NCBI GenBank assembly: GCA_029962745.1
Contig: CM057153.1
Span: 35,474,340 to 35,538,339 of the forward strand
Source: Echinometra lucunter
Lineage: Eukaryota > Echinodermata > Echinoidea > Camarodonta > Echinometridae
DNA length: 64,000 nt
Direction of reading: 5' to 3'
How positions within the stretch are numbered: the first letter of the stretch is position 1; the number at the start of each line of letters is the position of its first letter. Positions 8,352 through 55,500 of the stretch are shown here, piece by piece. The translations under genes and the position numbers were made by a program. The notes under the pieces are model-generated. The model was not told the origin of the DNA. It was given only the letters and a program-made list of their open reading frames with translations, and made no database searches.

Positions 8352-8421
8352 GCCTCTGTGGTCTAGTGGTAAGGCATTGGCGTTCTAAGCTAGTGACCCA
8401 GGTTCGATTCCCGGCGGAGGC
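8352..8421 (+). tRNA. tRNA-Arg(UCU)-like gene, copy 1
   Basis: The 70-nt segment folds as a tRNA: acceptor GCCTCTG/CGGAGGC (one G-U pair), D arm GTCTAGTGGTAAGGC, anticodon arm TTGGC-GTTCTAA-GCTAG with anticodon TCT, a 4-nt variable loop, and T arm CCAGG-TTCGATT-CCCGG with one A-C mismatch. A box (TGGTCTAGTGG) and B box (GGTTCGATTCC) fit Pol III promoters. A T-run follows directly. The T-stem mismatch, the G-U and G-T pairs in the anticodon stem and the repeat context suggest a SINE head or tRNA pseudogene rather than a housekeeping tRNA. Confidence 0.6.
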
Positions 8422-8747
8422 CTTTTTTTTAACCCTTGATTCAAAATGGATGACAGCTCTGGGGAACATCGAGGGAGCTACGCAATTATTATTCTCCCAT
8501 TTTCATTTCTTTCAGTGTTTATTATTTACAAGGGAGTTGCCAAAGTTGTTTGCATTTGTCAAATTTCTTTCAATGTATTGTCCCCTTATTCTGACTTATG
8601 CATGTATCCAGGCTTATAGCTGAGATCCAACTGCGGCATGCGGCTTCTCATTGTTCATTAACTCATCTGCACCAAAACAAAGGATAAAAAAAAGTTGGAA
8701 ATCTGTCTGTTGGTCAATTGGATTCGGTCACGCCTAACTGCTGGCCC

Positions 8748-8817
8748 GCCTCTGTGGTCTAGTGGTAAGGCATTGGCATTCTAAGCTAGTGACCCGGGTT
8801 CGATTCCCGGCGGAGGC
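8748..8817 (+). tRNA. tRNA-Arg(UCU)-like gene, copy 2
   Basis: Same fold as the copy 396 bp upstream, but the T stem is fully paired (CCGGG/CCCGG) and the anticodon loop is ATTCTAA. The anticodon is again TCT. A T-run begins 2 bases after the acceptor. Of the two copies this one is closer to a functional tRNA. Confidence 0.62.
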
Positions 8818-8965
8818 ATTTTTTTTCAACCCTTCATTCAAAATGGATGACAGCTCTGGGAAACATTGAGGGAGCTACCCAATTATTATTCTCCCATTTC
8901 CATTTCTTTCAGTGTTTATTATTTACAAGGGAGTTGCCAAAGCTGTTTGCATTTGTCAAATTTCT

Positions 8966-23027: not shown

Positions 23028-23934
23028 ATGAATCTTCGACCACGCGTGGTCGAACTTTATGCCTCCGCCATTACCAAATCAGAAATAAATGGGACTTCAT
23101 GTTGATTTATTTTCATTTATACAATGACATCTTTGACCTTGACCTTTGACCTTGTGACCCTCAAATCTAATCACTGTCTCTCCCATATGCATACATGTGC
23201 TAAGTTTGAGGTTGATCGGTCGAATGGTTGTTGAGTTATAGTGAAAACGAACCAATACTATGTACATAATGACCTCTAAGAGCTTTGACCTTTGACCTTG
23301 TGACCCCCAAATCTAATCAGATCATTGTCCCTTCCATGTGCATACATGAGCCAAGTTTGAGGTTGATCGGTCAAATGGTTGTTGAATTATGGTGAAAACG
23401 AACCATTTCTATGTGTATTATTACCTCTATGACCTTGACCTTTGACCTTGAGACCCCAAAATCTCATCAGATCATTGTCTCTCCCATATGCATACAAGTG
23501 CTAAGTTTGAGGTTGATCGGTCAAATGGTTGTTGAGTTATGGTGAAAACGAACCATTTCTATGTACATAATGACCTCTATGACCTTTGACCTTTGACCTT
23601 GTGACCCCAAAATCTAATCAGATCATTTTCCCTTCCATGTGCATACATGAGCCAAGTCTGAAGCCAATCTGTCAAATGGTTCTTAAGTTATCGCGAGAAC
23701 GAGCCATTTTTATGTGTATTATTACCTCTATGACCTTGACCTTGGACTATGAGACTCCAAAATCTAATCAGATCATTGTCCCTCCCATATGCATACACAA
23801 GCCAAGTTTGAAGTTGATCCGTCAAACGGTTCTTAAGTTATCGCGAGAACGAAAACGGGACGGACGGACGGACGGACGGACGACCCGAAAACATAATGCC
23901 TCCGGCAACCACCTACGGTGGGCGGAGGCATAAA
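23028..23934 (+). mobile_element. palindrome-capped repeat element, copy 1
   Basis: Begins with a 16-bp perfect palindrome CGACCACGCGTGGTCG (23037-23052), then the terminal repeat TTTATGCCTCCGCC (23056-23069), whose exact inverse closes the element at 23921-23934. Inside are five units of about 150 bp (register points 23145, 23291, 23441, 23592, ~23742), each with TGACCTTTGACCTTG-like sequence followed by AATCTAATCAGATCATT. Near the end come a GACG repeat (23859-23882) and a hairpin from 23896 to 23931. No protein is encoded. A second copy lies at 34087-34668. Confidence 0.8.
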
Positions 23935-27200: not shown

Positions 27201-29635
27201 GGCACACAGGAAAAAGGTAGACTAAGAGCTGGGATGGTGTCTGACTTAAAAGGTGACCAAAAATATGACATAATGAAGAAGATGGCTTACAACAGTGAGG
27301 GATAGAGAAATGACCAACCAAAGTTTGATTACATACCTCCATGCATAGCTGCTACATGTTGTGGCCTACGTCCATTGTCATCAGCGCCCTCTATATCCAT
27401 TCCTTTAGAGAGCAGGAAGTTGAGGATGGAAGGATGATTGTGCTGGGCTGCAAGATGGCATGGAGAGCGCCCCTTATTGTCTCGCAAGCTACAGTCAGCT
27501 CCTAATCAAAAATTGACAAGCAGATAAATACTGATTATATTTCTTGAAGGCATGTTGGCTACTAAATTTCAATGAATATTTGTTGACTAGCAGTCATACA
27601 TGACTGTACCAAAAAAGAGAGACTTCTCATGGGGATGTACCACAAAAGATTTAATATACTACAAATTGCGAGTCTTAGCTTTCATAGTGAGTATAATATA
27701 TTAATGATAATACTAATACTAATAATAATAACAATAATAATGAGAAGAATAAAGAAGAAGAAGAAGAAAGAAGAAAAAGAAGAAGAATGAAGAAGAAGAA
27801 GAAGAAGAAGAAGAAGAAGAAGAAGAAGAAGAAGAAGAAGAAGAAGAAGAAGAAGACTATTGCTCTCCATATAGGCCCTACAATGATTATTATCCCAGAA
27901 ATGCCAGGGACTCATTTCATATATCTGGGTCAAGAGGGACACATGGAGCAAAACACCTTGTCCAAGGATGCAGGCACAAGCCAAGGTCAAACCCAGGACC
28001 TCTCATATGAGAGACAAGACTGAGCCTTGACCGCAATACCACAGTGCCCCCACAAATATATAACATTACAATAATTCAACATATGGCTGATGCTACACAT
28101 ATCTGTCAACTGTTCAGAGTATATCATCATACAACTTCAAACAAGCCCTATGATAAAATAACAGGGGTTATCTCTTTATCATCAAAAATAAACTGTGTTG
28201 CTCATCAAAATAATCAGTCAAGGAAAAGAAAGACAGACCGCCCCTGTATAAAGATTGTACATTTATCCCCTGCATGCTATCTTCAAGCTGCAGTATAATG
28301 ACTAAGTGCTGACTGTTTCTCTGACTCCAATCATAATTAACTGTGTTTGGGGGGTGAATTTTCAGTTTTTGTATTTTGCTGCTCAGTCTGTACCAGTATA
28401 TCCAGTGTCCACTTCACTCCCATTCACATTTAGTAGATTGATAGAGTTTCATTTAAAAGAACCAAAATATTCCTGTTTGTAAATTTGAGATATGCAATTG
28501 AATCTGCTAAAATATGATAAAAATAATACAAAAATAAGACAAAAATATATGATATTTTTTTTGTTCCTCATTCCTTGAAAGAATTCAATTCATTTCAATT
28601 CATCAATTTAACATGCTTTAAAATAGATAAAAAGATAAAACAATTCTTAAAACCACAGTGAACTGGCGCTTATATAGCTCTGAAATGATGTATTTATAAC
28701 AGCGCCAACTTGCGGCTACTCACAATCAGAGACTGTCTTAGAAACATTACGCCCTTCTTGGCTTTCAGTGAACTGCCTTAGTCTGAATACACATACATTT
28801 TGACAGATGTGTCTCAAAAATTAAACTCGCGTTGATCAGAATAATGCATGCTGGGAGAAAAAAAACGGGACAGAATCAGTAGCTCAGGACTGAGATGGCG
28901 CTATTTCGAAATCTCATACAAGGGTGCCAGTTCGCTCTGGCTTTAAGATCATAAATCCAAAATATTTCCTTGATATACGATAAGTGAGGTATCAAGTGGA
29001 AGGATTTATTTAGTTTCATATTTATAGTGGCATTACTTTATCAATGTATAAAATGGCCTTTATCAGTTTTGCAATCAAACTTTTCATTTATATTCTGTTC
29101 AAGGCCAGAAGGGCATTAAATGTGGGACAAAGTAATAAGCTTTGAGGCCCTTCTGACTCTAAACAGATGAAATCTTTCACCTGCTTCTTCTAAAAGTTTC
29201 ATACAGCCCAGTTCTCCATGGTAGGCAGCCGTATGACAAGCTGTCTGGCCGAGGCTGTTAGTGGCATCCATGTCTGTTACATGGATCAGTAGGAGCTTCA
29301 GGACTTCTGTGTGCCCCCCTACACAAGCCTCATGGAGCATGGTACGACCCCCTTGAACTTTGATGTCTGGGTCCGCCCCGGCCTGCGTGAATGAAGAAAA
29401 CAGGATAAGATTTTCAAGCACCTTCCTTTTGAAAACTGAACACTTAAACTTAATATCATCACAGAACACATCTTTTAAAATGGGCACTGAAATGCCAACG
29501 TTTGGGAGAATTTTAATCATCACCATTCAAAAATAGCATCCCCCTCCTCCTCCTGAACAATCTCCTATAAACCCATAATTCGGGAACAGTCACTCTTCCT
29601 CCAAGGAGATTACACATCCTGATAATTACCCAGGC

Positions 29636-29670
<35 letters not shown>

Positions 29671-32157
29671 ACTCGACCCCAAAAGTGGTAGGTATGTGCC
29701 GCGGGCGAGACAAAAAACGGGGGCTTTGGAATGGGCTTATTGTGAAAAGGAGGGTCTTCGGAACGGGCTTCGAAACTACAAATGTTTGTGAAAACGGGGG
29801 GTCTTTGGAACGGTTCGCCTGCGTGTGAGTGTGTATGTATCCCTATCCCCATACGTGCATGCAGCTAGCCCGGCGGCACGGCCGCCGGGTGCGCTCGCGC
29901 AGAGGTGATGGTCGGACAGCGCTCTGCGGGCCGCTTTTCACCAAAAATGCAGCTCATTGTAGCAGATCAATGCGGCCGGAACGGCGTAACGAAAAATATG
30001 CGAAGCTTTGGTACGGATTTCTTTCTTCTTTTTTTTCTCGATAAGAAGAAAATGCTATGCTTTGGAACGGCTTTCTTTGTTCTTTTTCTCAATAAGACAA
30101 AAATGCTATGCTTTGGAACGGAAATTTGAGTGTAAAAATGGGGGTCTTCTCCGCAGCACATACCCACCACGCATTATATACTGAGTGCCCCCCCCCCCCC
30201 CCCCCCCCGGGTACCCAGGAAGAAAACTCTTAATCAGAAGTATTTTCTACACAGGCTATTGTTAAGTTGATAATTTGTCATACAAAGGTAATTTTTAGGA
30301 GTAAATGTACTAATGGTTAAATATCAAAACCAGGGATGGAGTCGAGGCCGGCCTCGAGGCCACATTTTGCCGGCCTTGGCCTTGGCCTCGGTCCGAGTCA
30401 TATGTACAAAGTCTATGGGAGAAATTTTTATCCAGCGGCCTCGTGACTCGGAACTGCCGGCCTCGACTCCATCACTGATCAAAACAGGATTTGTTCTCTT
30501 GGACCAAGGGGATGGTAAAAGATATTAAAGTAAAGATTGATATCCAATAATTTAAAGGACATCACAGATAATATGAGTCAATAGCATTTGTATATCACTG
30601 CGCATCAGTTTCACCATTGAATAATCTAACATTTGTTTCAATATTTTCATCATGAAAAAAATGAATATCACTGCCCTCTTCATTTCTTTATGGCTTACAT
30701 TAAGGAGCTCTTGTAGCGCTTCAGTCTGGCCATACTGTACAGCTTTCTGCATCGCCTGATCATTGCCCTTTGACCCATAAGGATTCTTGGATATGACCTG
30801 TCTGACCATCTCAGTGTCTCCTTTCGCAGCTGCATCTAACAGGTCCATCGTTGTATCTAGGATGGAAGACAATGTTACTGTATGAAGAGGTGTTGTGGCT
30901 CAATGGACAAGTCCCCGGACTGTGAATGAGATCTGAGGTTCCAATGCCACCACGGCACTAATGTCCTTTGGCAAGACATTAATCTACATTAGCCACCCTC
31001 CACCCAGGAGCAAATGGGTACCTGTGAGGATTGCCGAAAGCCTTTGCCACTGCCCTGCATGCATGCATGTGAATGGTACGAATGGTAGGCATGGTAGGAA
31101 TGGTAGGCATGGTAGGAATGGTAGGAATGCTCCTATAAGGAGTGGAGATGGTACACACATGTGTGCAGGCTAGAAATCTGGTGATCAGGGGTAATAATAA
31201 AAACATCGAAAAGCACACTGAGCTATTCACATAATGCGATTGGTACATTGTAGCACACAGATTCATGTTGGAAAATCTATCAAAATTGTTATCTGGCAAC
31301 AAAAAAAATAAATAAATCAATAGGAAAGCTACATGTGTAATACTGAGAGGATACTTACAAAAGCGCTTAGGTACATGTTACATACATGTACATACTTATA
31401 GTGTTTAAAACTTTTCATACAAAATATTAGTGCAGATTTTGCCTATAGTAAGGAAAAGGCAAGAGGAAAGTGTTTCTGAAAAAGGTGCTACACTGAGGAT
31501 TATGCTACAAAAAATGTCATACTCATAGGTATTGAAACATGGTGATGAATTATAGGGTACTCAGAGTATGTACACCAGAGTATGTACACCTGTTACAATG
31601 TGCATGTACCATGCGTACAAACATGCTATCCCTTTCTCTTCCCTCTTTTGTTTGATGTCAATAAACTTTCACTTAGCCTTAGATATATACAATTTTTCCC
31701 TCTATTTCTAGACATTGTCTCTTTCTCATTCACTCAAAGTTCATCTATCCTTCATCTTTTCCCACTTTTTTTCCCCGTATGCTTTTTTACCTTTATCCTT
31801 TTACACCCTTACACTCTCTTTATCTCTCTTCTACTTTTGTCTCACCATTCATTTCCCATTTAATTCTTGCCGAGACTGACCTGCAACAGAAGCATGTGCC
31901 TCAAGACTAGAGGTTGTCAACTTTGAACCCTGGGTCATCGTTCTTGTTCTCCCGGAAGCCTGATCTTGGATATCATTAATGAACGACACATTGGCTTTTG
32001 CTCGTACCAAATCGCTGGCAAAACCAAACGGACGATGGTCGATGACCTTTGATGGAGAGACCCGCGAATTTTCTAGAAGGGTCATCTTCTCGCGATAGGT
32101 CATTGTCTTTTCTCGTTCCAAGAAAGACTGGACTTGCATTGTCCTTTTATTTTCCAT
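24241..32157 (-). CDS. ankyrin-repeat protein, eight exons, complete
   Basis: Exons (minus strand, 5' to 3'): 32157-31881, 30856-30699, 29382-29181, 27501-27337, 27065-26884, 26080-26008, 25194-25030, 24389-24241. All introns are GT-AG and all phases join to one 456-residue frame ending in TGA at 24241. Residues 1-93 are a polar N-terminus that I do not recognise. From about 97 to 405 run roughly eight ankyrin repeats, with hallmarks such as GRTMLHEACVGGHTEVLKLLL, GRSPCHLAAQHNHPSILNFLL, LAAAHGSMTCLHWLLEKGSD and GNTPAHLAAAGGH. The last ~50 residues hold CTHCNDNYELSCW and a basic Ser/Thr tail, not a named domain to me. Ankyrin repeats bind proteins, so a scaffold or adaptor role is likely but the partner is unknown. 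The start is the first in-frame ATG; upstream only a TTG extends the frame. Introns carry many insertions. No orthologue name is assigned. Confidence 0.85.
26516..26842. mobile_element. MITE, GTTTCACAAAGC-ended, in ankyrin-gene intron 5
   Basis: Left GGGGAGTGTTTCACAAAGCT and right, in reverse complement, GGGGGGTGTTTCACAAAGCT. The inverted arms extend about 40 bp. Located wholly within the intron between exons 5 and 6. Same end style as the elements at 55101 and 56034. Confidence 0.75.
27760..28050 (-). mobile_element. tRNA-derived SINE with (CTT)n tail, ankyrin-gene intron 3
   Basis: Read on the minus strand from about 28048: GGCACTGTGGTATTGCGGTC (A-box region), then GAGAGGTCCTGGGTTTGACC (B box), then CTTGGACAAGGTGTTTTGCT and GACCCAG...GAGTCCCTGGC. 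This central block resembles the domain widely shared by animal SINEs (cf. 30893 and 35590). It ends in a long CTT run (GAA on the plus strand, about 27755-27856). Confidence 0.7.
28651..28942. mobile_element. TTAA-flanked MITE in ankyrin-gene intron 3
   Basis: TTAA at 28647-28650 and 28943-28946 flank ends CCACAGTGAACTGGC and, inverted, CCAGAGCGAACTGGC. TTAA target sites are typical of piggyBac- and Kolobok-type transposons. No coding sequence. Confidence 0.6.
29635..30211. mobile_element. C/G-tract-ended DNA transposon A (non-autonomous), ankyrin-gene intron 2
   Basis: Starts CCCGGGG with about 30 Gs, ends with about 22 Cs and CCCCGGG, and is flanked by the 8-bp direct repeat TACCCAGG (29627-29634 and 30212-30219). 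Subterminal sequence has diverged direct repeats with GCTATGCTTTGGAACGG (about 30048 and 30106) and further TTTGGAACGG copies. The middle (29865-29990) is GC- and CpG-rich. Same architecture as the larger element at 46290-48266. No open frame of note. Confidence 0.8.
30331..30477. mobile_element. hAT-like MITE, ankyrin-gene intron 2
   Basis: Ends CAGGGATGGAGTCGAGGCC and, in reverse complement, CAGTGATGGAGTCGAGGCC are flanked by the 8-bp direct repeat ATCAAAAC (30323-30330, 30478-30485). CAG-type ends with 8-bp duplications fit hAT elements. 147 bp, non-coding. Confidence 0.8.
30893..31197 (+). mobile_element. tRNA-derived SINE, ankyrin-gene intron 1
   Basis: tRNA-like head with A box (GTGGCTCAATGG) and a degenerate B box (GAGGTTCCAATGCC). 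It is followed by the conserved SINE central block TTTGGCAAGACATTAATC ... CCACCCAGGAGCAAATGGGTACC. A short minisatellite of GGTAGGAAT/GGTAGGCAT units lies at 31078-31128, and the end is GGTGATCAGGGGTAATAATA. Confidence 0.75.
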
Positions 32158-40161: not shown

Positions 40162-40791
40162 GGTGAGTTTCACAATCCGTCTGCCCATGAACAGACGTGT
40201 TTTTTCGTCTGTTTCAGAAACGGATTTTGATTTACATCTTTTTGTCACACCGTGGGCACTGACGAAGAGTGTGACTTCGCCTTTCATTTTTGAGAGCTAT
40301 GCTCCGTTTTCTTTTAAAATCTATGATTTTATTTTTTATGGCATTCTACCACCAACTCTGATTCCTGTATTTTCCAGATGCCACGCAGACTAATTTTCAT
40401 TTTATTTAGGTATTTTTTACCTGTTTACTGCTACTCTATGACTGTTGGCGGTGAGGTCCTTTTCAGATTTTCCTGTTTTGGAGCCGGAGATTCGCCATTG
40501 TCATCTTGCAGTCATGACAACGCGTCTTGGGATGCGTTATTTACTTCGCGCCATCTCCATCTTCAGCGCGTTGATTTCTTTTGAAAGGTGAGTTTCACAA
40601 TCCGTCTGCCCATGAACAGACGTGTTTTTTCGTCTGTTTCAGAAACGGATTTTGATTTACATCTTTTTGTCACACCGTGGGCACTGACGAAGAGTGTGAC
40701 TTCGCCTTTCATTTTTGAGAGCTATGCTCCGTTTTCTTTTAAAATCTATGATTTTATTTTTTATGGCATTCTACCACCAACTCTGATTCCT
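40162..40791 (+). repeat. tandem repeat, 425-bp period, 1.5 copies
   Basis: Sequence 40162-40366 is repeated at 40587-40791 with no difference that I can see over 205 bp, at an offset of 425 bp. Copy 1 is preceded by (TA)n and copy 2 runs directly into (TA)n. Each copy contains a hairpin ACAGACG-TGTTTTTT-CGTCTGT. No protein is recognised in any frame. Confidence 0.85.
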
Positions 40792-40799
40792 ATATATAT

Positions 40800-42559: not shown

Positions 42560-44020
42560 CCAGGATTTCTCCTCTTTCCTTCTCTTTCCTATCCGTTTTC
42601 TTCTTTCCTTTTCTTTTTCTTTCATTTCTTATTCATTTTTTCTTCTCTTCTTTCCTTTCCTTCCTCTTCCTCTTTTTTTTCTCTTTCCTTCGCTCTTGAA
42701 ACCTCCCTTTTTTAGGCATGAAGAGTGGGGTGGGGCGGAAGGGTATTTCCGCCCCCCCCCCCCACACACATTTTGGACGGCGGGGTAACCTCGCCCTCCC
42801 CACCCCCGGTTCCCGGGGTTTTATGAAGCATAATAAAAATTCTTTATTTTTTTTAAACCGATAAAAGTATTCAAAATACTTTTGACGTATATGTTAACAG
42901 AAAAGAAAAGCATAATAAACAGTTAAAAAAGGACGCTCATCGCCATGGCCGACTGAATCTTTTGTTTAAAATAGCTATGATGTAATTAGATTTAGAATAC
43001 AAAGGATGTTGTCACATAGAGGTAAGGGGATGGAGAAGAGAAGAAGGGGGGGGGGGGCGGTGTACATGTGTATGCCTCGAGCTCTCTCAGCTCGAGGTAG
43101 ATTTTTATTTTTGGCGATGAATTCGAACGTAGAGAGCGCGCTACATTCACTAGGGAAATTTGGGATAGCCGTGCGACAAAGTTGTGCATGTTAAAATCTA
43201 GATCTACCCTTTTACCTTCAAGATCATAGTGATAGTCGACACTGCTTAAGACTGCTTTTTTTTTTCCTGTGTTAGTGGTAAGTGTACCAAACTACTCATA
43301 GTTGATACAAGACCGTGCAAACATTACCCGTCTTAACGACATGTCCCTTGCAAGAAGCAAGCCGCTCCTGTCCCCGGCATGCAAGGCAGAATACCCCGTG
43401 GCGTTGGGACCGGACGCACGTCGCAGGCGCAGGCTCCATCATCATGCTTGCAATGCAATGAAATACCCCCAATGCCCCAGTTCACCGTCTTCTTTCAAGA
43501 CTTGTCCGTCTTCCCACGGACTTGTAATAAAACCTGATATACTGTAGGTTTACATTGAGCTAGCGCTCTCAACTTGCGCCTGCAATTCTAAGGGGATTGA
43601 ACTTTCTTATGTCTTTTTGGTATGAAGAAATCCTTTAAACTGTTAAATGAGGACAATCCTGGTTAACGAAGACAATCTGCATTTACAGACCAGTGTCTCT
43701 ACCGATTTTATCCTCGGACAACTCTCATCTGGAACTAGACCGAAGTGTTCTGTCTCTAACAGTTGTCGTTAGCCTCGTATTTTGGTAGGCATGGTAGGGT
43801 CGGCACTCCTCCTTTTTAGAGACGGAAGCGCCCCAGTGCGTTGTGCATGCAATCTCATTGTCGTGGGCACGACAATGAAAAACTACCTCAAATCAGCGAT
43901 TTTCCCCCTTTATTCATGAATATAAAAAAATATCATTATACACTACAGAGTAGACCTATACAATGTAGCTTACCGATTTTATGTTTGATTCCTTTTAACT
44001 CTCCATTTTCAGGTAAATCC
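42560..44020. other. intergenic, no gene recognised
   Basis: Pyrimidine-rich tract 42560-42700, C-run 42753-42764, G-run 43047-43057. No gene recognised in the remaining DNA. Confidence 0.5.
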
Positions 44021-44355
44021 AGGGTCCTAACGTTACGTCCTATCGGTTGAAAATCTTGCAGCAGCTAACCTATATCTCTGTTTGCCTCCGCGCTTTTCAC
44101 AGGGAGATCAGCGAATTCGCTACTCCTTGCATTTCAACCGGCCGTATTCAAACGATCGACCACGTACATTTGGCCATATACGTACGAACGATGTTTTTGT
44201 TGTTGTTGTTTCGTATTGGTCGCTCATTAATACAGTTGAAATGCGAGGTGCAAATTCGCTGATCTCCCTGCGAAAAGTGCGGAGGCGAACAGAGATCGAG
44301 ATAGAGGTTGGCTGCTGCAAGATTTTCAACCGAGAGGACCTAACGTTAGGACCCT
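44021..44355. mobile_element. foldback element with ~130-bp arms
   Basis: Left end AGGGTCCTAACGTTACGTCC and right end, inverted, AGGGTCCTAACGTTAGGTCC. The arms continue with matching TCGGTTGAAAATCTTGCAGC and GGGAGATCAGCGAATT for about 130 bp each. 335 bp in total, no coding sequence. Confidence 0.85.
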
Positions 44356-44360
44356 AGATA

Positions 44361-44569
44361 TATTATAGTAAACTTTGCCATCAGTGGTAACTTTTATGGA
44401 ATACTGGATTTTGATTGGCTGTAGAGCAAAGTTACCATGGTAGTTACCATGGATAGCAAAGTTACTATAATAGCAAGTTTTAATGCAGTGGCACCCAGGT
44501 CTACCACCTGGGGGTATTGTTTATGAAAGATTTACGTGTAAAGGCTTCCTTATGTACATGCATTTTAGT
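44361..44569 (+). repeat. 209-bp block duplicated at 49151-49359
   Basis: Matches 49151-49359 over 209 bp with no gaps and about eight substitutions. It contains most of a small MITE (see 49149-49264) plus about 95 bp of flank with a hairpin CCCAGGT...ACCTGGG. The left end of the MITE is replaced here by the foldback element that ends at 44355. Confidence 0.85.
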
Positions 44570-45764: not shown

Positions 45765-46281
45765 TATAGGAGAGGAAGGTTTGCCTTGCCTTACAATGTG
45801 ATTCCGAAGTCTGCATCTTTGTCATCTGAATACGATGACCTCTGAGTCGACATCGTATGGTCCTTTTGACTGGAGTGATGTGCCTTTTGGTGCTAAACTT
45901 GTGGATTTTATAGAAGAGGGTAAGGCTTGAATGCTCTCTTCAAATCTTCAGAGAAGGCCATCTCTGTTGTCAGATTATGTCCTCAATGCTTGAGGTGATG
46001 GGGTAGCGATGGAGGACAAATCTGACTGTACATCTTTGAACCATTTCCAGCAGAAGGGTCCCAAACAGCACTGCCATACTGTAAATGGACAAACGAGAGC
46101 CTTGTGCATGATAGTTGTTAGTCCTTGAGAGTTTGATTTTCCAGTTTCTCTGGAGGAAAGCTTGGGTCTTATCTGCTTTTTGGCAGATGCTGGCAGTGTG
46201 TTGATTCCACATCAGGTCCTGTGTGTGATGCTGAGGTGCTTTGTTAATGTCAGAGAGTCCAGAGCAGCACCATTCAGGGAG
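45765..46281 (-). mobile_element. LINE reverse-transcriptase remnant, 3' part
   Basis: On the minus strand, with frameshifts, one reads DLMWNQHTASICQKADKT, AFLQRNWKIK, MVQR...RFVLHRYPITSS and a further ~90 codons. This is the order of the C-terminal part of a CR1/Rex-type reverse transcriptase. The upstream continuation lies beyond the transposon at 46290-48266, at 48275-48345. Confidence 0.75.
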
Positions 46282-46290
46282 TATTAATGC

Positions 46291-46324
<34 letters not shown>

Positions 46325-46374
46325 ACTCTATGTACAACACTGTAACCATGCTCGTGCACACCCTTTCAAAAAGA

Positions 46375-46605
46375 ACCCTTAACTAGGATTCGCAGAGCTC
46401 AAAAAAGCTACCCTTAACTAGGATTTTTTCTCTCCAGCATACCCTTAACTAGGATTTTTCTCTCCAGCATACCCCTAACTAGGATTTTTTTTTCTCCACG
46501 TATACTCTTAACTAGGATTTTTCTCTCCACGCATACCCTTAACTAGGATTTTTCTCTCAACGCATACCCTTAAACTAGGATTTTTCTCTCTCCGTATACC
46601 TTTAA
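46375..46605 (+). repeat. subterminal tandem repeats of transposon B
   Basis: At least six units of about 28-36 bp with the core ACCCTTAACTAGGATTTTTC followed by TCTCCA(c)GCAT. Diverged units continue to about 46655. Subterminal repeats of this kind often bind transposase. Confidence 0.8.
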
Positions 46606-47378
46606 CAATGATTGAGAGCATTGGACTTAAAAAGCACCCTTAACAAGGACTAGGTCAAATATAACTCTTATCATTAGAGCAAGACTGTAGGAATAGTAAG
46701 AATGTATCAAGTTCTTTCAAAAGCAACAGGGACTAAGTTCATATTTTGATAATAAAAAAGGGGGTGGTAAACAATAATTGTAGTTTTAACATAATAAATC
46801 AAAAATTAACTAATTCTAAAATCATGCCATTTCCTCAGGTTGCATCAACAGAGCTGCCACATTTCACTGGAACATTTCAGTACTCCAATCAGTATTTGTT
46901 AAGGAAATCCGTGTTTCTCAAATACAGTGTAGATAAACAACAGAACAGAGAAACTGGACATTTAAAAATGAGTATTTTGTATTCTTCTCAATTACCACTA
47001 TGAACAGTATTCTTCACAAATTTCAGGATGAAATACTGAAAATCAGTACTACGTGGCAACTCTGCATCAATGTCATGAACACAGTGATATAAATGACACA
47101 CAATAAGTCAATACAGACAGTGTTGACATTCATTGAGTACTTTTTAATTCACAGTTAAGTGGCCATCCAACTTCTTCTAGAAAATGCATTATATAAATAT
47201 ATTTACAAATCTTACACGAAGAGGGAGTGGCGGGATTAAAACTGCCAGGCAAAACGGTGGTTTTGATACTCCACCATTGTTGTTGCATGGGACTATCGTG
47301 TTCTACACTTGATTGTGAAGCTCGAATACGACTATCAACATAACGCGATATAATGATACAATTCAATTCAAAACTTAC

Positions 47379-47504
47379 CTTTCGATGAAAGGCATGATTG
47401 CAATCTTTGCAATAATAAAGTGAGCAATCATAACACCAAAAGGTTGGCCCCTCCAGTTCACATTGGCCGCATTCCACGACCATGGATAGATCTGCTTGCG
47501 CCAT
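47379..47504 (-). CDS. partial gene: first coding exon with B-box/CxC-like zinc finger
   Basis: A 42-codon exon starts with ATG at 47504 and ends at a perfect splice donor (AAAG|GTAAGT at 47379/47378), phase 0. The peptide holds ECGQC, FWCYDCSLYYCKDC and HAFHRK, giving spacing C-x2-C-x8-C-x2-C-x4-C-x2-C-x4-H. That fits a B-box-like zinc-binding module and also resembles the Cys clusters at the N-terminus of KDZ-type transposases. No second exon could be found downstream (below 47379) within transposon B or beyond. The exon lies entirely inside the element, so it is either a captured host exon with its promoter or the first exon of the element's own deleted transposase. Function is unknown. 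Confidence 0.6.
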
Positions 47505-48124
47505 GGTTGTATGATCTACGCTAGCTTACCCGCCCGCGCCGGCTGGCGCGGCACGGGCCTGCTGGCCGTTGGGTCTATAGCTAGTCTAGTCAGCAAAATA
47601 TGCATGCATGCTCATATGCTGCGCGCGCTCGATATATACCGTGATATAGTTACTAAGCATGGCTCACTTACCGTAAACCGTACCATACTCGCATCGCTAT
47701 ATATCTCGTTTTGCTAATGATTGCGCCTATTGCATATATTGCGATACAGTATGCATGACGCACGCGTTTGGCGTATATACCAAAGCTATTTACACCCATT
47801 TTGTTTACACCTCGCTCCGGGGGTACAATGTCACAAAAATATGAATGATTCGACTGTAAATAAATTGAAAAATCAGTGAAAATTGGGGGAAATTGATGGA
47901 AAGGGGGAAAATCACTGTGAATTAGGTACATTTTTATTTCACTTCAGATTATGCAAAAAATGACCCTTAGCGCGGATTTAGCGCTGAAAAGACCCCCTTT
48001 TTCTCTCAAATCGGCGATTTTGATACCCTTATCGCGGATCCGCGCGGATCCGTGCTCTGCCTGAAAACACACCTATTTCCGCGTTTTTGTGCACGCGCAT
48101 GGTTACAGTGTTGTACATAGAGTG

Positions 48125-48152
48125 GCCCCCCCCCCCCCCCCCCCCCCACCCC

Positions 48153-48219
<67 letters not shown>

Positions 48220-48263
48220 ATCCCCCCCCCCCCCCCCCGCCCCCCCCCCCCCCCCCCCCCCCC
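48125..48263. repeat. ~138-nt cytosine tract
   Basis: Almost uninterrupted C on the plus strand (G on the minus), broken only by a few A/AA, T and G. It is the right end of transposon B and lies about 140 bp upstream of the DBR1 start codon. Such tracts can form G-quadruplex/i-motif structures and are also prone to assembly error. Proline- and glycine-repeat frames over it are artefacts. Confidence 0.9.
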
Positions 48264-48274
48264 GGGTATTAATG

Positions 48275-48345
48275 CAGGTTCTTTTCCTTGTGATCTTGGT
48301 GACGTGGCATTTTCGAGTGTTCTCTCTCCCTCTCTCTCTCTCAGG
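48275..48345 (-). mobile_element. LINE reverse-transcriptase remnant, 5' part
   Basis: On the minus strand it encodes KCHVTKITRKRTCIN, which leads into the SLNGAAL segment on the far side of transposon B. This matches the KCHV-x-RITRKR-x-LHG-x-L order of CR1/Rex-type elements. A (CT)n tract bounds it near 48324-48345. Confidence 0.65.
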
Positions 48346-48405
48346 ATAACTTGCATGTAAACACTGCTCTTAATTTTTCAGTGAGATAAGACTGACCCCA
48401 ACAAG

Positions 48406-51400
48406 ATGCGGATAGCAGTTGAGGGATGTGGTCATGGAGAGCTTGATAAGATATATGAGACAATAGCCTTTGCAGAGCAGAAAGAAGGTAATCATCATCT
48501 GAAATCTGTGCTAACTTTCTTTTTTCAGGTTCTTGAATAGATAAGTGGGGCACTTGTGAACCCGAGCCCCTGCTTGCTTGCACTCTAGTATTTTCAGGAG
48601 TAAGGAGTGACATAAGTGACATATTAAAAGGAATCTCAAAAGTTAGTGTAAAACCCTGAGTACATGTGGGTAAATGGATAAAGGATATGAATGCATTGAA
48701 TGCTAGAAATTTAGTGATAAAAGTAATAACATTATCATACAATTTCAATCTCAGATTGTACACATGTGAATACACGTTTTTGTAAGATCTCAACTGTCTG
48801 AATGACTTCTGAATGACTACTGTATGTACCTAATGCACTCATGGCTTAAGATGTTTAGTTATGATTAAGGCTCTTCTTAACTTGTCACCATTTATTATTG
48901 ATTTGAATCAGTATCCATGTTCATTTTATGTTTCAACTTGAATTTTGCTCGTGCCTTTTCTGCTCAATTTAGGCTTCAAGGTGGATCTGCTGCTGTGCTG
49001 TGGTGATTTCCAGGCTGTGCGTAATGAAGCTGACATGGAGTGTATGGCTGTTCCCAAGAAATACCGCCAGATGAACACTTTCTACAAGTATGTGTAGGCA
49101 AGATTAGTTTTATGCAGGGTCAATTCTAGGTGTTGTTGCATAAAACTTGCTATTATAGTAAACTTTGCCATCAGTGGTAACTTTTATGGAATACTGGATT
49201 TTGATTGGCTGTTGAGCAAAGTTACCATGGTAGTTACCATCGATAGCAAAGTTACTATAATAGCCAGTTTTAATGCAGTGGCACCCAGGTCTACCACCTG
49301 GGGGTATTGCTTATAAAAGATTTACGTGTAACGGCTTCCTTATGTACATGCATTTTAGTTGACCTCCTAGCTTGATTCAAAAGTGTCAACAAACGGCTAG
49401 CTCATCAAAGCCACCGTACACTTGTGATAAATGTTAGTGCCCCCCCCTCCCTCCAATCATGCCATTCTACCATGCACTTGATGTTATTTAATAAAATGCT
49501 TCTTCTGCTAATACTAACTACATGTATATATGAGTCGGTGATGTTGTCCTATTCACCGTTTTGCAGAATAGTCCTATGTGTTATTGTACAACACCTACCT
49601 AGCTTGTTGTACACAAGTCTATTGGAGCTGAACTTCTAGTATCGGTACCATTGCACACATACCATCCAAAATGTACCGCATTACACAGCTAGCATGACTA
49701 TACTATATACTTATATTGTTTCTGTTGTGACATCACAATTAGCTTGCGCAGTATAAGCGTATTCAATTTTTTAGGCAAGTCACGCTTTGCACTATAGATA
49801 CACGCTAAATGCTCATCCAGGCATTTTGCAGTTGGATCCAATTTCCCTGTTTTTTAAACCTTGATTTGTGAACAAGAATCTTTTTCTTGATTCTAATCAG
49901 TTTCTTCTCAAACTTCCAAGGTGTTGTGCAATACAAATAGCAACCATTTTAATACATGCAGTGGTACAAGATTTCACATTAGGTGAAAGAGCAGCGTAGC
50001 TTTTATTCAATTTGCCTTTGCGTTGTTGAGTAGATCATCACTCTTTCACCTTATGTGAATCTCGTACCATTGCACTTGTGTCTTTTCACTATTTATATAT
50101 TAGAACACGAAATAACTAGAAGGAACAACAACATAAAGATTTGTCACATACATGTATGAATCCTGTGCTCTGTACTATTCCTTGGCAAATCAAAATATCT
50201 GATTTACAGTATGACTATTCTTACTTACTTCCTGTCTCACCATTCCTTGCCTCTCAGGTACTATTCTGGGGAGAAGAAAGTTCCAGTTTTGACCATCTTC
50301 ATTGGTGGGAACCACGAGGCTTCCAACTATCTGGCTGAACTGCCTTACGGAGGGTGGGTCTGTCCTGGCATCTACTATCTAGGTGACTGATAATCATTTT
50401 TTTCTCAAGACAAGCAATGCTAATGATGAAAAAGTAATTAGACTTGTGGATGCATAATCATGCTATGGATCTAATGAATGTGGTGCATTAGATTATTTCA
50501 GAGCAAGTCCAAGGGATCTGATAAGTTTTGGTTTTCATAGATTGCCAAATACTGAGGAGTTCAGTTCAATTTATTTCAAACATATTAAATGACAGGTCAA
50601 ACGAATCCAAGGCATCGTACATATTCAAGGAATTGACAGAAAAGAGTACAACTACATGCACATATACAGTCCAACCTCACTTATCCTGTCTTCATTTATC
50701 CGGACTCCTCTATTAACTCTCCGCATGTTTCATTCGCACCAGTGCACACCCTTGGACGGGCTTCGTTTGCATTTTTGCACATCTACGTATTTCCCTATTG
50801 AAGCCCTTATTCCCCGTATTGAGCATGGATTGTTCATGTAATGTATGCTTTTACTTGTAGTTTTAGGGGTATTCAATTTCAAATTCAGTGATGAGGGAGA
50901 CTTACTGTCACTATCTTTACAATAAACAATTGAGAAAAAAAAAAAAATCAATACACCCTCCCGGGCCAGCATATATCCAGAAAGTCCGGTTTATTGTTGT
51001 GAGCCATGAGTCACAACACCTTTGAGCACACTTCACAACGGCTCTGCCACTGGGGTAAGGTCCAAATTCACTCCCATTTTCTTTTTCCCTTTTGTTAGGT
51101 CTTTTCTTGTCAGATTATCATGGTTTTGGTATCACTAGAAAGCTTATTCAATTATCTGTGCATATGAACATGCAATACACCTGCCACTGATACAGGAACC
51201 ACCCAAAAGTGCAGAAGTTTTTGTTGGAAAGACAAGAGTGTATGTAAAGTGTATGAAAATGAGTATTATACAGACAAAGCACACTAATATGTGAAATGGA
51301 TTATATTTGATAAAAATGCCTGTGAAACACTCTACAAGTTTGCTGCACAACATTTTCCTAAAAATGTTCAGGTGAAGTGTTATAGCCCTCTAAATAACAG

Positions 51401-52473
51401 TGTCTGTGAATCCAGATTAGTGGCCACTGCTGAAATAATGCAACGCACAGGCGGTATGCAGGTCAACGCATGAAGAGTTAACCAGCCGCGTCTCTAGTGC
51501 ACCTAAAAGCCTGGGAGACAGAAACATCGTGGGCAATTTTCTGTTTTATTTTATTTTGTTTTCATCTTGTACAAACAGAAAGATATTACTGATCATTTAC
51601 AATCATCCACAACACCAAGGAAATAGATATTTTACAGCAAATAGACCGTTCTACCCTATAAATTTTCGTAACAAAGGTGTCCCACTACATTACTCTCATA
51701 TCCGGCCATTTCACTTATACAGATGGGCGCCGGTCCATGATGAGGGAGCCGGTCCGTGACGTGGCCGGATATGTGAGGTCAGACTGTACATGAATATAAA
51801 ATATGTAACATTACATAGGCAAACTTATTATGGGAATGAGGACAGCTGAGAAGAACAACTCTATATTCAGCTGCCAAAAGGAAGATCTCATGGAGTTAAA
51901 TTGAATAACTACAAGAAAATGCAGTAAATTGCAAATGACATTTAATATGATGTGCATGTACATGAAAATTTTGTTGGTATCAGAAGTGTTAATTGCATTG
52001 TATTTCATCTGATCAAGGCAGGAGTAAGGTTGTCAACCAAATACAATTATCAGCTTTGCTCAAATCTGAAATTTGTCACTAATGACTTATAGGGCAAGAA
52101 GGTCTTAGCTTGGATTTGCCCTCCAATTTCAATTTCAGTAATTATCTGAACTACATGTAAGACCTAAAAATCATTGTATATATATATATATACCGGTATA
52201 TATATACATTTTTTTTTTTTTTCGTTGTTATAGTAGCTAGTGCTACAAAATAATTTGAAAGAGAATAATAACAAGGTCTTGTTTCTTTGATTGTTCACTT
52301 GAAGGTTATGCCAGTATAGTGAACTATGGTGGGATAAGGATTGGAGGACTATCTGGTATCTTCAAGAAGCATGACTACAGGAAAGGTCACTTTGAGAGGC
52401 CTCCATATTCCCAGGATGAGATGAGAAGTGCATATCATGTCAGAAACTTGGAAGTTTTCAGATTGAAACAGGT

Positions 52474-52507
<34 letters not shown>

Positions 52508-55500
52508 CGTCTCGTGCCTTCTCAACATTTAAATTGCCCCTGGATTTTCCATTTTCGTTTTTCATTCTTCATTTATCTGTTCTGCTTTTTTTTAATTATT
52601 TTTTTTTATTTGTTTATTTTTTTGAATTCATTTATGTTTTTTTAGCAGCATTGATTTGGCTAAGGTACTCTTGTAAAAGTTATTTTCATAAAAAAATAAA
52701 AGGTATATGGAATCTGAATATAGCTTACTCTGATGGCAGGCTGCCTTTAAAGGAAATCACACTAACATCTCTGTATTTCAGCCTTTGAGTACCCCCCCCC
52801 CCCCCCAAAATGCATTTTTTAATTCAATTCCCTTTCATTCACCAAGTTATTTTTAATTGCTTGACAGCATTCATGTAAAAATGACATCATCTATATGATT
52901 TATACTGCTCCCTGTTAGAAAAACCTGTGGGGGAAAAGGAAGGAAAAATAAACATTGGCTTATGTAAAGTATTGCTGTAGTGTGTTGAAAAATGAAGTGG
53001 GATAAACAAGGGATTGGAGTGCAAGCCTTGCCTTTCATTCCAAACAATGTATCTATCACAAATTAAGCGTTATGTAAGAGGGAATGATAGAAAGGACAAG
53101 CCTCATCCTTGGTTACCAGGTAGCTTAGTTATTAATTGATTTATATTTATAAGATTATAGCCTTTGGATGTACTTCTAGTATTGTACCATTTTGTGGTTC
53201 ATGTACAAATAATATATCTATGTACGCACATTTAGATTTGCCATGTGAGTGGATATTGGGGGGGGGGGAAATTAGATTGGCTAGAATTCCATATGCCCCC
53301 TGCCCCACTAAAATTGAGGGGAAAAGGGAAATTGCTCTCTTTCCCAGCCTGAGTTATCAGAATTGCCTATAACAAGTTAATTTCATTCATTGAATGCAGA
53401 TTCAACAGCCAATTGACATTATGATGTCACATGACTGGCCTAGGGGCATCTATCACCATGGAAACAAGGAGGAACTCTTCCGCAAAAAGAAATTCTTAGT
53501 GGAGGAAGCCATGAGCAACACATTAGGCAAGTTGTGAACATCTCTGACTTCTGTTCTTTGTAGTCTTAATGTAAAAATTAAGTTCCCAGCTAGATAGAGC
53601 TGTAAGCAACACATTGATTATGAATATCTCTGTTCTATTCTCAGTTGTGGTTTAAGAAATATAAGTCCTAGTTAGAGGACCTCCAAGGATTATCTAGAAA
53701 GCAACAAAGTTGAAGATTTTGGTAGTAAATTATCAATTACAATAACTTATCACTCTTAGAATAAAAGTAATACAGGTGAAAATAAAAACAAATTTTAATT
53801 ATTAATTTCTATTAGAACACTCTTACATATGTTAAATATGCTAAAAAATTTGTTGCTGGTAGTTACATATTTTTGCATTAGCAGATTTGTGTAACAAAAT
53901 CCCTGTCATCTTGCTGAATTTAGCACAAATTTAAAAGGAGCATGCTTCAGTTGCCCATGGGATATGTTGCAATTTCTGAATTTGGTATTGTAGAGCATTC
54001 CCTCCAATTTTCATAAATTTTCATATATACACTGCGACGATTACTTTCATCTAAAGTGAAGGGTTGAGGTTAGGCTTAGGGTTCGACTGGGTTCTAGGTT
54101 TAGGGTTTGTGTTGGGGTTGTGATAAGGTAAGTTGTAGTGTTATGTCCAGGGTTAAATTCAGTAATTCTGTTAGTGTCGGAAAGTGACTGTTGTGCAATT
54201 TTCACAGTCATGTGTTATAAAACCTTTTCAGATATCAGCTAATGATGTTATGGGTATGTTTTTACAGGTAGTCCACCTGCAGAAGAACTGCTTCATGATC
54301 TTAAACCGGACTACTGGTTTTCAGCTCATCTCCATGTCAAGTTCTCAGCTTTGGTGGAACATAAGGTAGGATACTATTTGCTTCATAATGTTCCCCATGA
54401 AAAAGCTGCTAGAAATGTTTGTGTTGTAGCAATCTTTAACCAGTCTCCTGATGGTGATGATGCATTAAAGAGTTCCTTGAAGGAAGGTGATATTTTGTTC
54501 TATGTAAAATCCCTCTTTGAGAGAGAAAATATAAGCCTTTTTTTTTTTCATTTAGATTTTCAGATTTTACTGATCAAAATCAGGGAATAATTACTGTGAA
54601 CAAAAACACAGACAATATAATTGAGTCAAGTGGCAATGGAGAACTTACATTTTTTGTAAACAAATACAATGTCAGTATACCTTAGCCAATTTTTTCTTTA
54701 TTTATTATTCTTCTTCTTCTTCCATGTATTCATACACAATGGGAAGGTATCTTGTTATAACAAATCATTACCACAAAAGCATTTTAATTGAGAAATGGTC
54801 ATTTACAGGAATACACGTATTACCTAATGACAGAAAAAAAATATCAAATGCTTATTCACTGTAAATCTTAGAAAAGAACCATTTTGCCTGTAATGATGTA
54901 TATCGACCACTCACATAAATCACGGTGATTGCATATGGATTGTAGGATGCTCTGCCTATTTGATGTATGACCCATGAACTTGGATTGTTGGGGTTTTTTT
55001 TGCAGGGAGATGATGGCACCGTGCAGAAGGCAACCAAGTTTCTCGCTACTGACAAGTGTCTGCCAGGCAGAGATTTTCTGCAGGTAAAGTAAAATAAATT
55101 CAGGGGAGCGTTTCATGAAGAGTTTTGTCAGTGATTTTCACTGACAACTGTTATAAGCTACTGAAAATCCTCGCATCTGATTGGCTGAGAACAAATTAGT
55201 CAGTGAAAATCACCGACAAGACTCTTCATGAAATGCTCCCCAGATCGGTTGTATATAGCATTAATGTTGAGCATAATTTCATTTCAGTATAACATGCATT
55301 TTCCATGGGCCCTAGCCTGAGTTATCGCGGATTTAGTGTTCAACTGGTTAAAACACATACCACATTATGATTCAGCTGTAATCCAATTTTCAAATAAATT
55401 GCAATATAAGATTGAAAAAACATCTACCAGATATTTTGTAAAGACATTACAAAGGTGTATAGTCTTCCAAGCTCTTGTTGTGATCATAGCAATTGTAAAA

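What the first reader, a model, noticed from the sequence alone, without database searches (positions are those of the whole stretch)
46290..48266. Transposon with C/G-tract ends carries an intact zinc-finger first exon and its GC-rich upstream region
Seen: exact 8-10 bp target duplication, inverted subterminal ends, internal tandem repeats, and a minus-strand 42-codon exon with a Cys-rich finger and a perfect donor, preceded by a CpG-rich block. Two readings are possible: (a) the element captured a host promoter plus first exon, a Pack-type transduplication; (b) the exon is what remains of its own transposase, since 8-bp duplications and an N-terminal Cys cluster both fit KDZ/Zisupton-like elements. 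Either would be noteworthy, the second as a possibly undescribed family with homopolymer-G ends.
Basis: partly seen in the sequence, partly recalled or inferred. Interest (0 to 1): 0.75.

Follow-up and report, generated by a model that had tools for sequence, protein, structure and literature searches.

The report
Sea urchin transposon with G-run ends
A 1,977-base piece of jumping DNA with long runs of G at its ends sits just in front of a sea urchin RNA-processing gene and still carries the first exon of a zinc-finger protein, probably a leftover of the gene that once moved it.

Summary
46290-48266 (E1) is a DNA transposon: identical inverted ends, CCC + G run + CCACTCTATGTACAACACTGTAACCATG; an exact target duplication; a 31-bp tandem array; and a minus-strand 42-codon exon with a strong start context and perfect donor below a CpG-rich stretch. 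The peptide has B-box zinc-ligand spacing (0 of 60 simulated windows) and narrowly passes two Pfam B-box cut-offs.

New: a second, unreported element (E2, 29635-30211) has the same end design and an exact 8-bp duplication. CCCGGGGGGGG occurs four times in the window, at the four ends of E1 and E2. So G-run ends recur in two elements, and 8 bp is the likely duplication length.

The host is a sea urchin (DBR1 95% identical to Lytechinus pictus). E1 ends 139 bp before the DBR1 start codon.

Best reading: a non-autonomous, internally deleted cut-and-paste element that keeps the promoter and first exon of its own lost gene (0.6). Capture of a host exon is not excluded. KDZ/Zisupton membership is unproven: the duplication fits, but no KDZ transposase or KDZ-associated Cys cluster matched. 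The genome search did not complete (17 tries), so copy number and full-length relatives are unknown.

The parts
46282..46289 (.). left copy of the 8-bp target duplication TATTAATG
46290..48266 (.). E1, whole element, 1,977 bp, ends CCC...GGG
46290..46350 (+). left inverted repeat: CCC, 30 G, then CCACTCTATGTACAACACTGTAACCATG
46409..46613 (+). 31-bp tandem array, 6.5 copies, core ACCCTTAACTAGGAT
46614..47378 (.). AT-rich, mostly CpG-poor interior; intron and 3' part of the lost gene by the main reading; no coding piece recognised
47379..47504 (-). first coding exon, 42 codons, B-box-like zinc finger, GTAAGT donor just below 47379
47505..48097 (-). CpG-rich 5' region, putative promoter, with two diverged copies of the subterminal core (47956-47978 and 48023-48039)
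   Evidence: promoter function inferred
48098..48266 (-). right inverted repeat with an impure C run of about 138 bp, then GGG
48267..48274 (.). right copy of the 8-bp target duplication TATTAATG
29627..29634 (.). E2 left target duplication TACCCAGG
29635..30211 (.). E2, second G-ended element, 577 bp: CCC + 32 G ... 21 C + GGG, imperfect inner inverted repeats, diverged direct repeats
30212..30219 (.). E2 right target duplication TACCCAGG
48406..54365 (+). host gene DBR1 (lariat debranching enzyme), six matched coding pieces; later exons not mapped

Best explanation
E1 is a non-autonomous cut-and-paste DNA transposon of a sea urchin. Shown: it is bounded by inverted repeats that begin with CCC and a long G run, and it lies between exact copies of its target. 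Inferred: it is an internal-deletion derivative. The 5' end of the parental element (inverted repeat, subterminal motif, CpG-rich promoter, first coding exon with a B-box finger) and its 3' end (array, inverted repeat) survive, and the catalytic exons are gone. A transposase made by a full-length relative moved it in trans, binding the inverted repeats and perhaps the ACCCTTA...GGAT repeats. The G runs probably lengthen by replication slippage and are tolerated because recognition lies inside them. If the promoter works, its transcript would splice the B-box exon to whatever acceptor lies to the left.
For: Exact inverted repeats and target duplication. The same end design in E2: CCCGGGGGGGG occurs only at these 4 ends, 0 in 100 shuffles. 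B-box ligand spacing once in the window's six frames and 0 in 60 simulated windows; Pfam ANCHR-like B-box 28.4 bits against cut-off 27, zf-B_box 24.3 against 24.1. Strong start context and perfect donor. Start codon about 0.6 kb inside the inverted repeat; CpG-richness from near the end to the exon. The strict subterminal core occurs 6 times in the window, 4 at E1's left side and 2 at its right, all in one orientation. No transposase domain left in the 10 longest stop-free frames tested.
Against: No relative of the exon was found, though the search needs three shared 5-residue words. No other genome copy was seen, because the genome search did not complete. E2 carries no such exon. The Pfam margins are thin, and in the longer 131-residue frame zf-B_box falls below its cut-off (21.4 against 24.1). 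A frame of a neighbouring stretch that I take for non-coding also passed a Pfam cut-off (zf-LITAF-like 26.4 against 23.8). The ligand pattern was written after seeing the exon. The 131-residue open frame is weak evidence (4.7% of 300 resamples reach it).
Confidence: 0.6

Rival explanations
1. Pack-type capture: a non-autonomous element picked up the promoter and first exon of a host B-box gene (TRIM- or ANCHR-like) and carries it as cargo.
For: B-box fingers are common in animal host proteins (recalled), and the best Pfam match is the ANCHR-like B-box. Exon and CpG-rich upstream block look like an ordinary gene start. E2 shows that such elements exist without the exon.
Against: No capture boundary seen: CpG-richness and the subterminal core reach from the element end to near the exon. 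The exon sits where an autonomous element would have its first exon. No second copy of the exon in the window.
Confidence: 0.22
2. The exon belongs to the element but to an accessory gene, not to the transposase.
For: KDZ elements often carry accessory genes (passages of PMC12477816).
Against: No second gene trace in the stop-free frames tested; the question cannot be settled from this copy.
Confidence: 0.12
3. The exon is a chance open frame; E1 is an ordinary non-coding element.
For: Only 42 codons; thin Pfam margins; an off-frame Pfam pass close by shows that such passes happen; no homologue found; low-confidence fold, mean pLDDT 64.4.
Against: Full ligand spacing once in the window and 0 in 60 simulated windows, joined to a strong start context and a perfect donor.
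Confidence: 0.05

Closest known systems
KDZ (Kyakuja-Dileera-Zisupton) DNA transposons
   Same: Zisupton, one Dileera family and Cryptococcus KDZ1 make 8-bp duplications, and Cryptococcus KDZs have inverted repeats and a zinc-chelating CxC1 domain (passages of PMC12730594; PMC12810828). Zisupton genes are multi-exonic, with relatives in lancelets and sea stars (passages of PMC9297572).
   Different: No KDZ transposase or KDZ-associated Cys cluster matched. Cryptococcus KDZ inverted repeats are 139-241 bp; two Kyakuja families have 7-bp duplications, CA..TG ends and no inverted repeats. The platyfish Zisupton cluster lies at residues 1333-1393, not at the N-terminus (passage of PMC12062965). 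G-run ends were not mentioned in the passages seen.
hAT and P superfamilies
   Same: About 8-bp duplications (passage of PMC3706591).
   Different: Ends CCC...GGG, not the CA-type ends that I recall for these; the targets TATTAATG and TACCCAGG do not fit the recalled hAT target nTnnnnAn; no transposase, BED or THAP match in the frames tested.
Mutator-like (MULE/Rehavkus) and Merlin elements
   Same: G-rich ends and 8- to 10-bp duplications (recalled).
   Different: No MULE or other transposase match in the frames tested; homopolymer G runs of this length are not a feature that I recall for them.
Sea urchin TU foldback elements
   Same: Sea urchin host, 8-bp duplications and tandem repeats near the ends (all recalled, not read here).
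   Different: E1 has one tandem array on one side and G-run termini; not compared by sequence.

Membership tests
[quoted passage not shown]
[quoted passage not shown]
   exact in E1 and E2; 8 bp fits both
[quoted passage not shown]
   The genome search unanswered 17 of 17 times
KDZ/Zisupton | KDZ transposase domain (PF18758) | tested here: not met
   not listed for the 10 longest stop-free frames of E1 at E up to 1; the parental element could still have it
KDZ/Zisupton | CxC-type Cys cluster | tested here: not met
   6 Pfam families at E up to 10, none KDZ-associated; B-box instead. The filters can drop weak matches
KDZ/Zisupton | 8-bp target duplication | tested here: met
   shared with hAT and P, so not diagnostic
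hAT | hAT transposase or BED finger | tested here: not met
   remnants only
hAT | target consensus nTnnnnAn (recalled) | tested here: not met
   TATTAATG and TACCCAGG
P element | THAP finger at the N-terminus (recalled) | tested here: not met
   one search lists no THAP match
Pack-type capture | an identifiable host gene donating the exon | tested here: inconclusive
   searches found no candidate; the search is insensitive for 42 residues
B-box zinc finger | C-x2-C-x8-C-x2-C-x4-C-x2-C-x(1-4)-H ligands | tested here: met
   Pfam cut-offs passed narrowly
B-box zinc finger | B-box fold | tested here: inconclusive
   single-sequence model, mean pLDDT 64.4; no fold search made

The most novel reading that the evidence does not exclude
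E1 and E2 stand for an undescribed lineage of animal DNA transposons defined by CCC plus long homopolymer-G termini, [CT]ACTC just inside them, 8-bp duplications and tandem subterminal repeats, moved by a transposase that begins with a B-box finger. The G runs may be part of the recognised end, for example through G-quadruplex structure, rather than a by-product of slippage.
Probability: 0.2. Interest if true: 0.65.

Novelty: new variant of a known kind. Interest (0 to 1): 0.4.

Why it matters
Two elements with unlike interiors but the same end design suggest that the G-run terminus is kept by the transposition machinery; a search for such ends beside 8-bp duplications could find the full-length element. 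A B-box as the first module of a transposase would add a protein- or chromatin-binding finger to the known set (inference). The insertion 139 bp before the DBR1 start codon, with a CpG-rich putative promoter pointing away from it, is a concrete case of a transposon placing a promoter and an exon with a donor beside a conserved gene. G runs of 21-138 bp at transposon ends are also a likely source of assembly and alignment error.

Tried and rejected
A 10-bp duplication for E1: disfavoured, because E2 with the same ends repeats exactly 8 bp and the CCC...GGG ends are symmetrical at 8. Kinship of the E1 and E2 interiors: inconclusive; the best local alignment was reached by 38 of 60 resamples on one strand and 1 of 60 on the other. 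Other G or C runs as element ends: 2 of 37 pairs passed, E1 and E2. RNA families in 28000-56000: 0 at gathering score. NCBIfam on the exon: 3 matches, all far below cut-off. Solved structures: best of 13 listed is the PML B-box chain, E 0.045 over residues 11-38, not significant alone. Sub-cut-off Pfam matches of E1 frames (Arrestin_C, CEBP_ZZ, HSM3_C, Iron_permease, EndoS_Ig-like, DyP_N, and a short peptide-toxin family at 22.2 against 25 bits) are taken as chance. Folding of 47500-47600 as DNA: z -1.65, not notable. The end pattern in viral and prokaryote contigs: 0 and 0, as expected for an animal element. Ten literature searches showed me no title or abstract start describing such G-ended elements; most listings were capped (for example 20 of 68, 40 of 65, 12 of 275). 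The founding KDZ paper is not held (PMC3918813); the founding Zisupton paper I know only from citations. Of seven papers I saw passages only: PMC12730594, PMC5718144, PMC3706591, PMC9297572, PMC12810828, PMC12062965, PMC12477816.

Full report
What is there. The window comes from a sea urchin: the DBR1 protein read from it (239 residues) is 95% identical to that of Lytechinus pictus and 93% to that of Diadema antillarum, against 77-78% for three sea stars in the list (best 120 of 5,343 shown). Six DBR1 pieces lie on the plus strand from 48406 to 54365. E1, at 46290-48266, ends 139 bp before the DBR1 start codon.

E1's boundaries. On both sides an exact TATTAATG touches an end that reads CCC plus G run on the left and C run plus GGG on the right. 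Inside the runs the two ends carry the same 30 bases in inverted orientation without a mismatch. The left G run is 30 bases; the right C run is about 138 bases with a few other letters. The exact repeat reaches 10 bp if each end is cut one base shorter. The second element speaks for 8.

The second element. At 29635-30211 lies E2, 577 bp, which the finding does not mention. It starts CCC plus 32 G and ends 21 C plus GGG, between exact copies of TACCCAGG that cannot be extended. It has an imperfect inner inverted repeat (27 nt, 81%) and diverged direct repeats around CTTTGGAACGG. CCCGGGGGGGG occurs four times in the 64,000 bases, at exactly these four ends, against none in 100 shuffles. [CT]ACTC follows the G run, directly in E2 and after one more C in E1. 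Beyond that the interiors are not convincingly alike. I recall similar G-run plus TACTC repeats from coral sequences; that is memory, not a result here.

Inside E1. Read on the minus strand, the right end holds the inverted repeat, two diverged copies of the subterminal core, a CpG-rich stretch, and then a start codon in a strong context, 42 codons and a perfect donor. The rest is AT-rich and mostly CpG-poor, without a recognised coding piece, and ends in the 31-bp array and the left inverted repeat. The strict core ACCCTTANCNMGGAT occurs six times in the window, four at E1's left and two at its right, all in one orientation.

The exon. Its peptide narrowly passes the Pfam cut-offs of two B-box families. 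That alone is not enough: a neighbouring frame that I take for non-coding also passed a zinc-ribbon cut-off, and within the 131-residue frame one of the two B-box scores falls below its cut-off. The ligand spacing is stronger evidence: one occurrence in the window's six frames and none in 60 simulated windows, though I wrote the pattern after seeing the exon. A single-sequence structure model was too uncertain to use (mean pLDDT 64.4). No relative was found among proteins of about 23-73 or about 448-1426 residues, but that search needs three shared five-residue words, so it says little.

The empty site. With the two flanks joined in a script, without E1 and with one duplication copy, the minus-strand frames read as broken pieces that resemble the end of a non-LTR reverse transcriptase on both sides of the junction. 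The likeness is recalled, and Pfam gave no reverse-transcriptase match for the two left-flank frames tested. If right, E1 landed in an old retroelement remnant upstream of DBR1.

How it most likely works. Shown: transposon ends, target duplication, a retained gene start. Inferred: E1 is a deletion derivative moved in trans by a transposase made elsewhere; the exon and promoter are the surviving start of the parental gene; the G runs grow by slippage. I prefer 'own gene' over 'captured gene' for its layout: promoter and first exon lie where an autonomous element would have them, and I saw no capture junction. Against it, no catalytic piece was found and E2 lacks the exon. I put own gene at 0.6, capture at 0.22, accessory gene at 0.12 and chance at 0.05.

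What it is not shown to be. 8-bp duplications fit KDZ/Zisupton (passages of PMC12730594 and PMC12810828), and Zisupton relatives exist in sea stars and lancelets (passages of PMC9297572). But hAT and P also make about 8 bp (passage of PMC3706591), and the KDZ-specific protein features tested were not met. I leave the superfamily open.

Limits. The own-genome search was asked 17 times and never answered, so copy number, full-length relatives and empty alleles are unknown. Statements on ends and targets of other superfamilies are recalled where so marked.

Noticed in passing
29635-30211: Second G-ended element E2 with its own 8-bp duplication TACCCAGG; now part of the argument.
   Followed up: yes
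45973-46289 and 48275-48370, minus strand: Broken frames on both sides of E1 resemble the end of a non-LTR reverse transcriptase, so E1 may sit inside an old retroelement remnant (likeness recalled, no Pfam support).
   Followed up: partly
45978-46211, minus strand: A frame that I take for non-coding passes the Pfam zf-LITAF-like cut-off (26.4 against 23.8 bits): a caution about short Cys-rich frames.
   Followed up: partly
44014-44362: Foldback-like inverted repeat: arms of 65 nt (91%) and 52 nt (88%), possibly another small transposon.
   Followed up: no
40162-40370 and 40587-40795: A 209-nt direct duplication, 100% identical, the first copy beside a (TA)41 run.
   Followed up: no
8352-8422 and 8748-8818: Two tRNA-Arg (TCT) genes 396 bp apart on the same strand.
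   Followed up: no
23123-23853: 150-bp tandem array, 4.9 copies, rich in GACCTTTGACCTTG.
   Followed up: no
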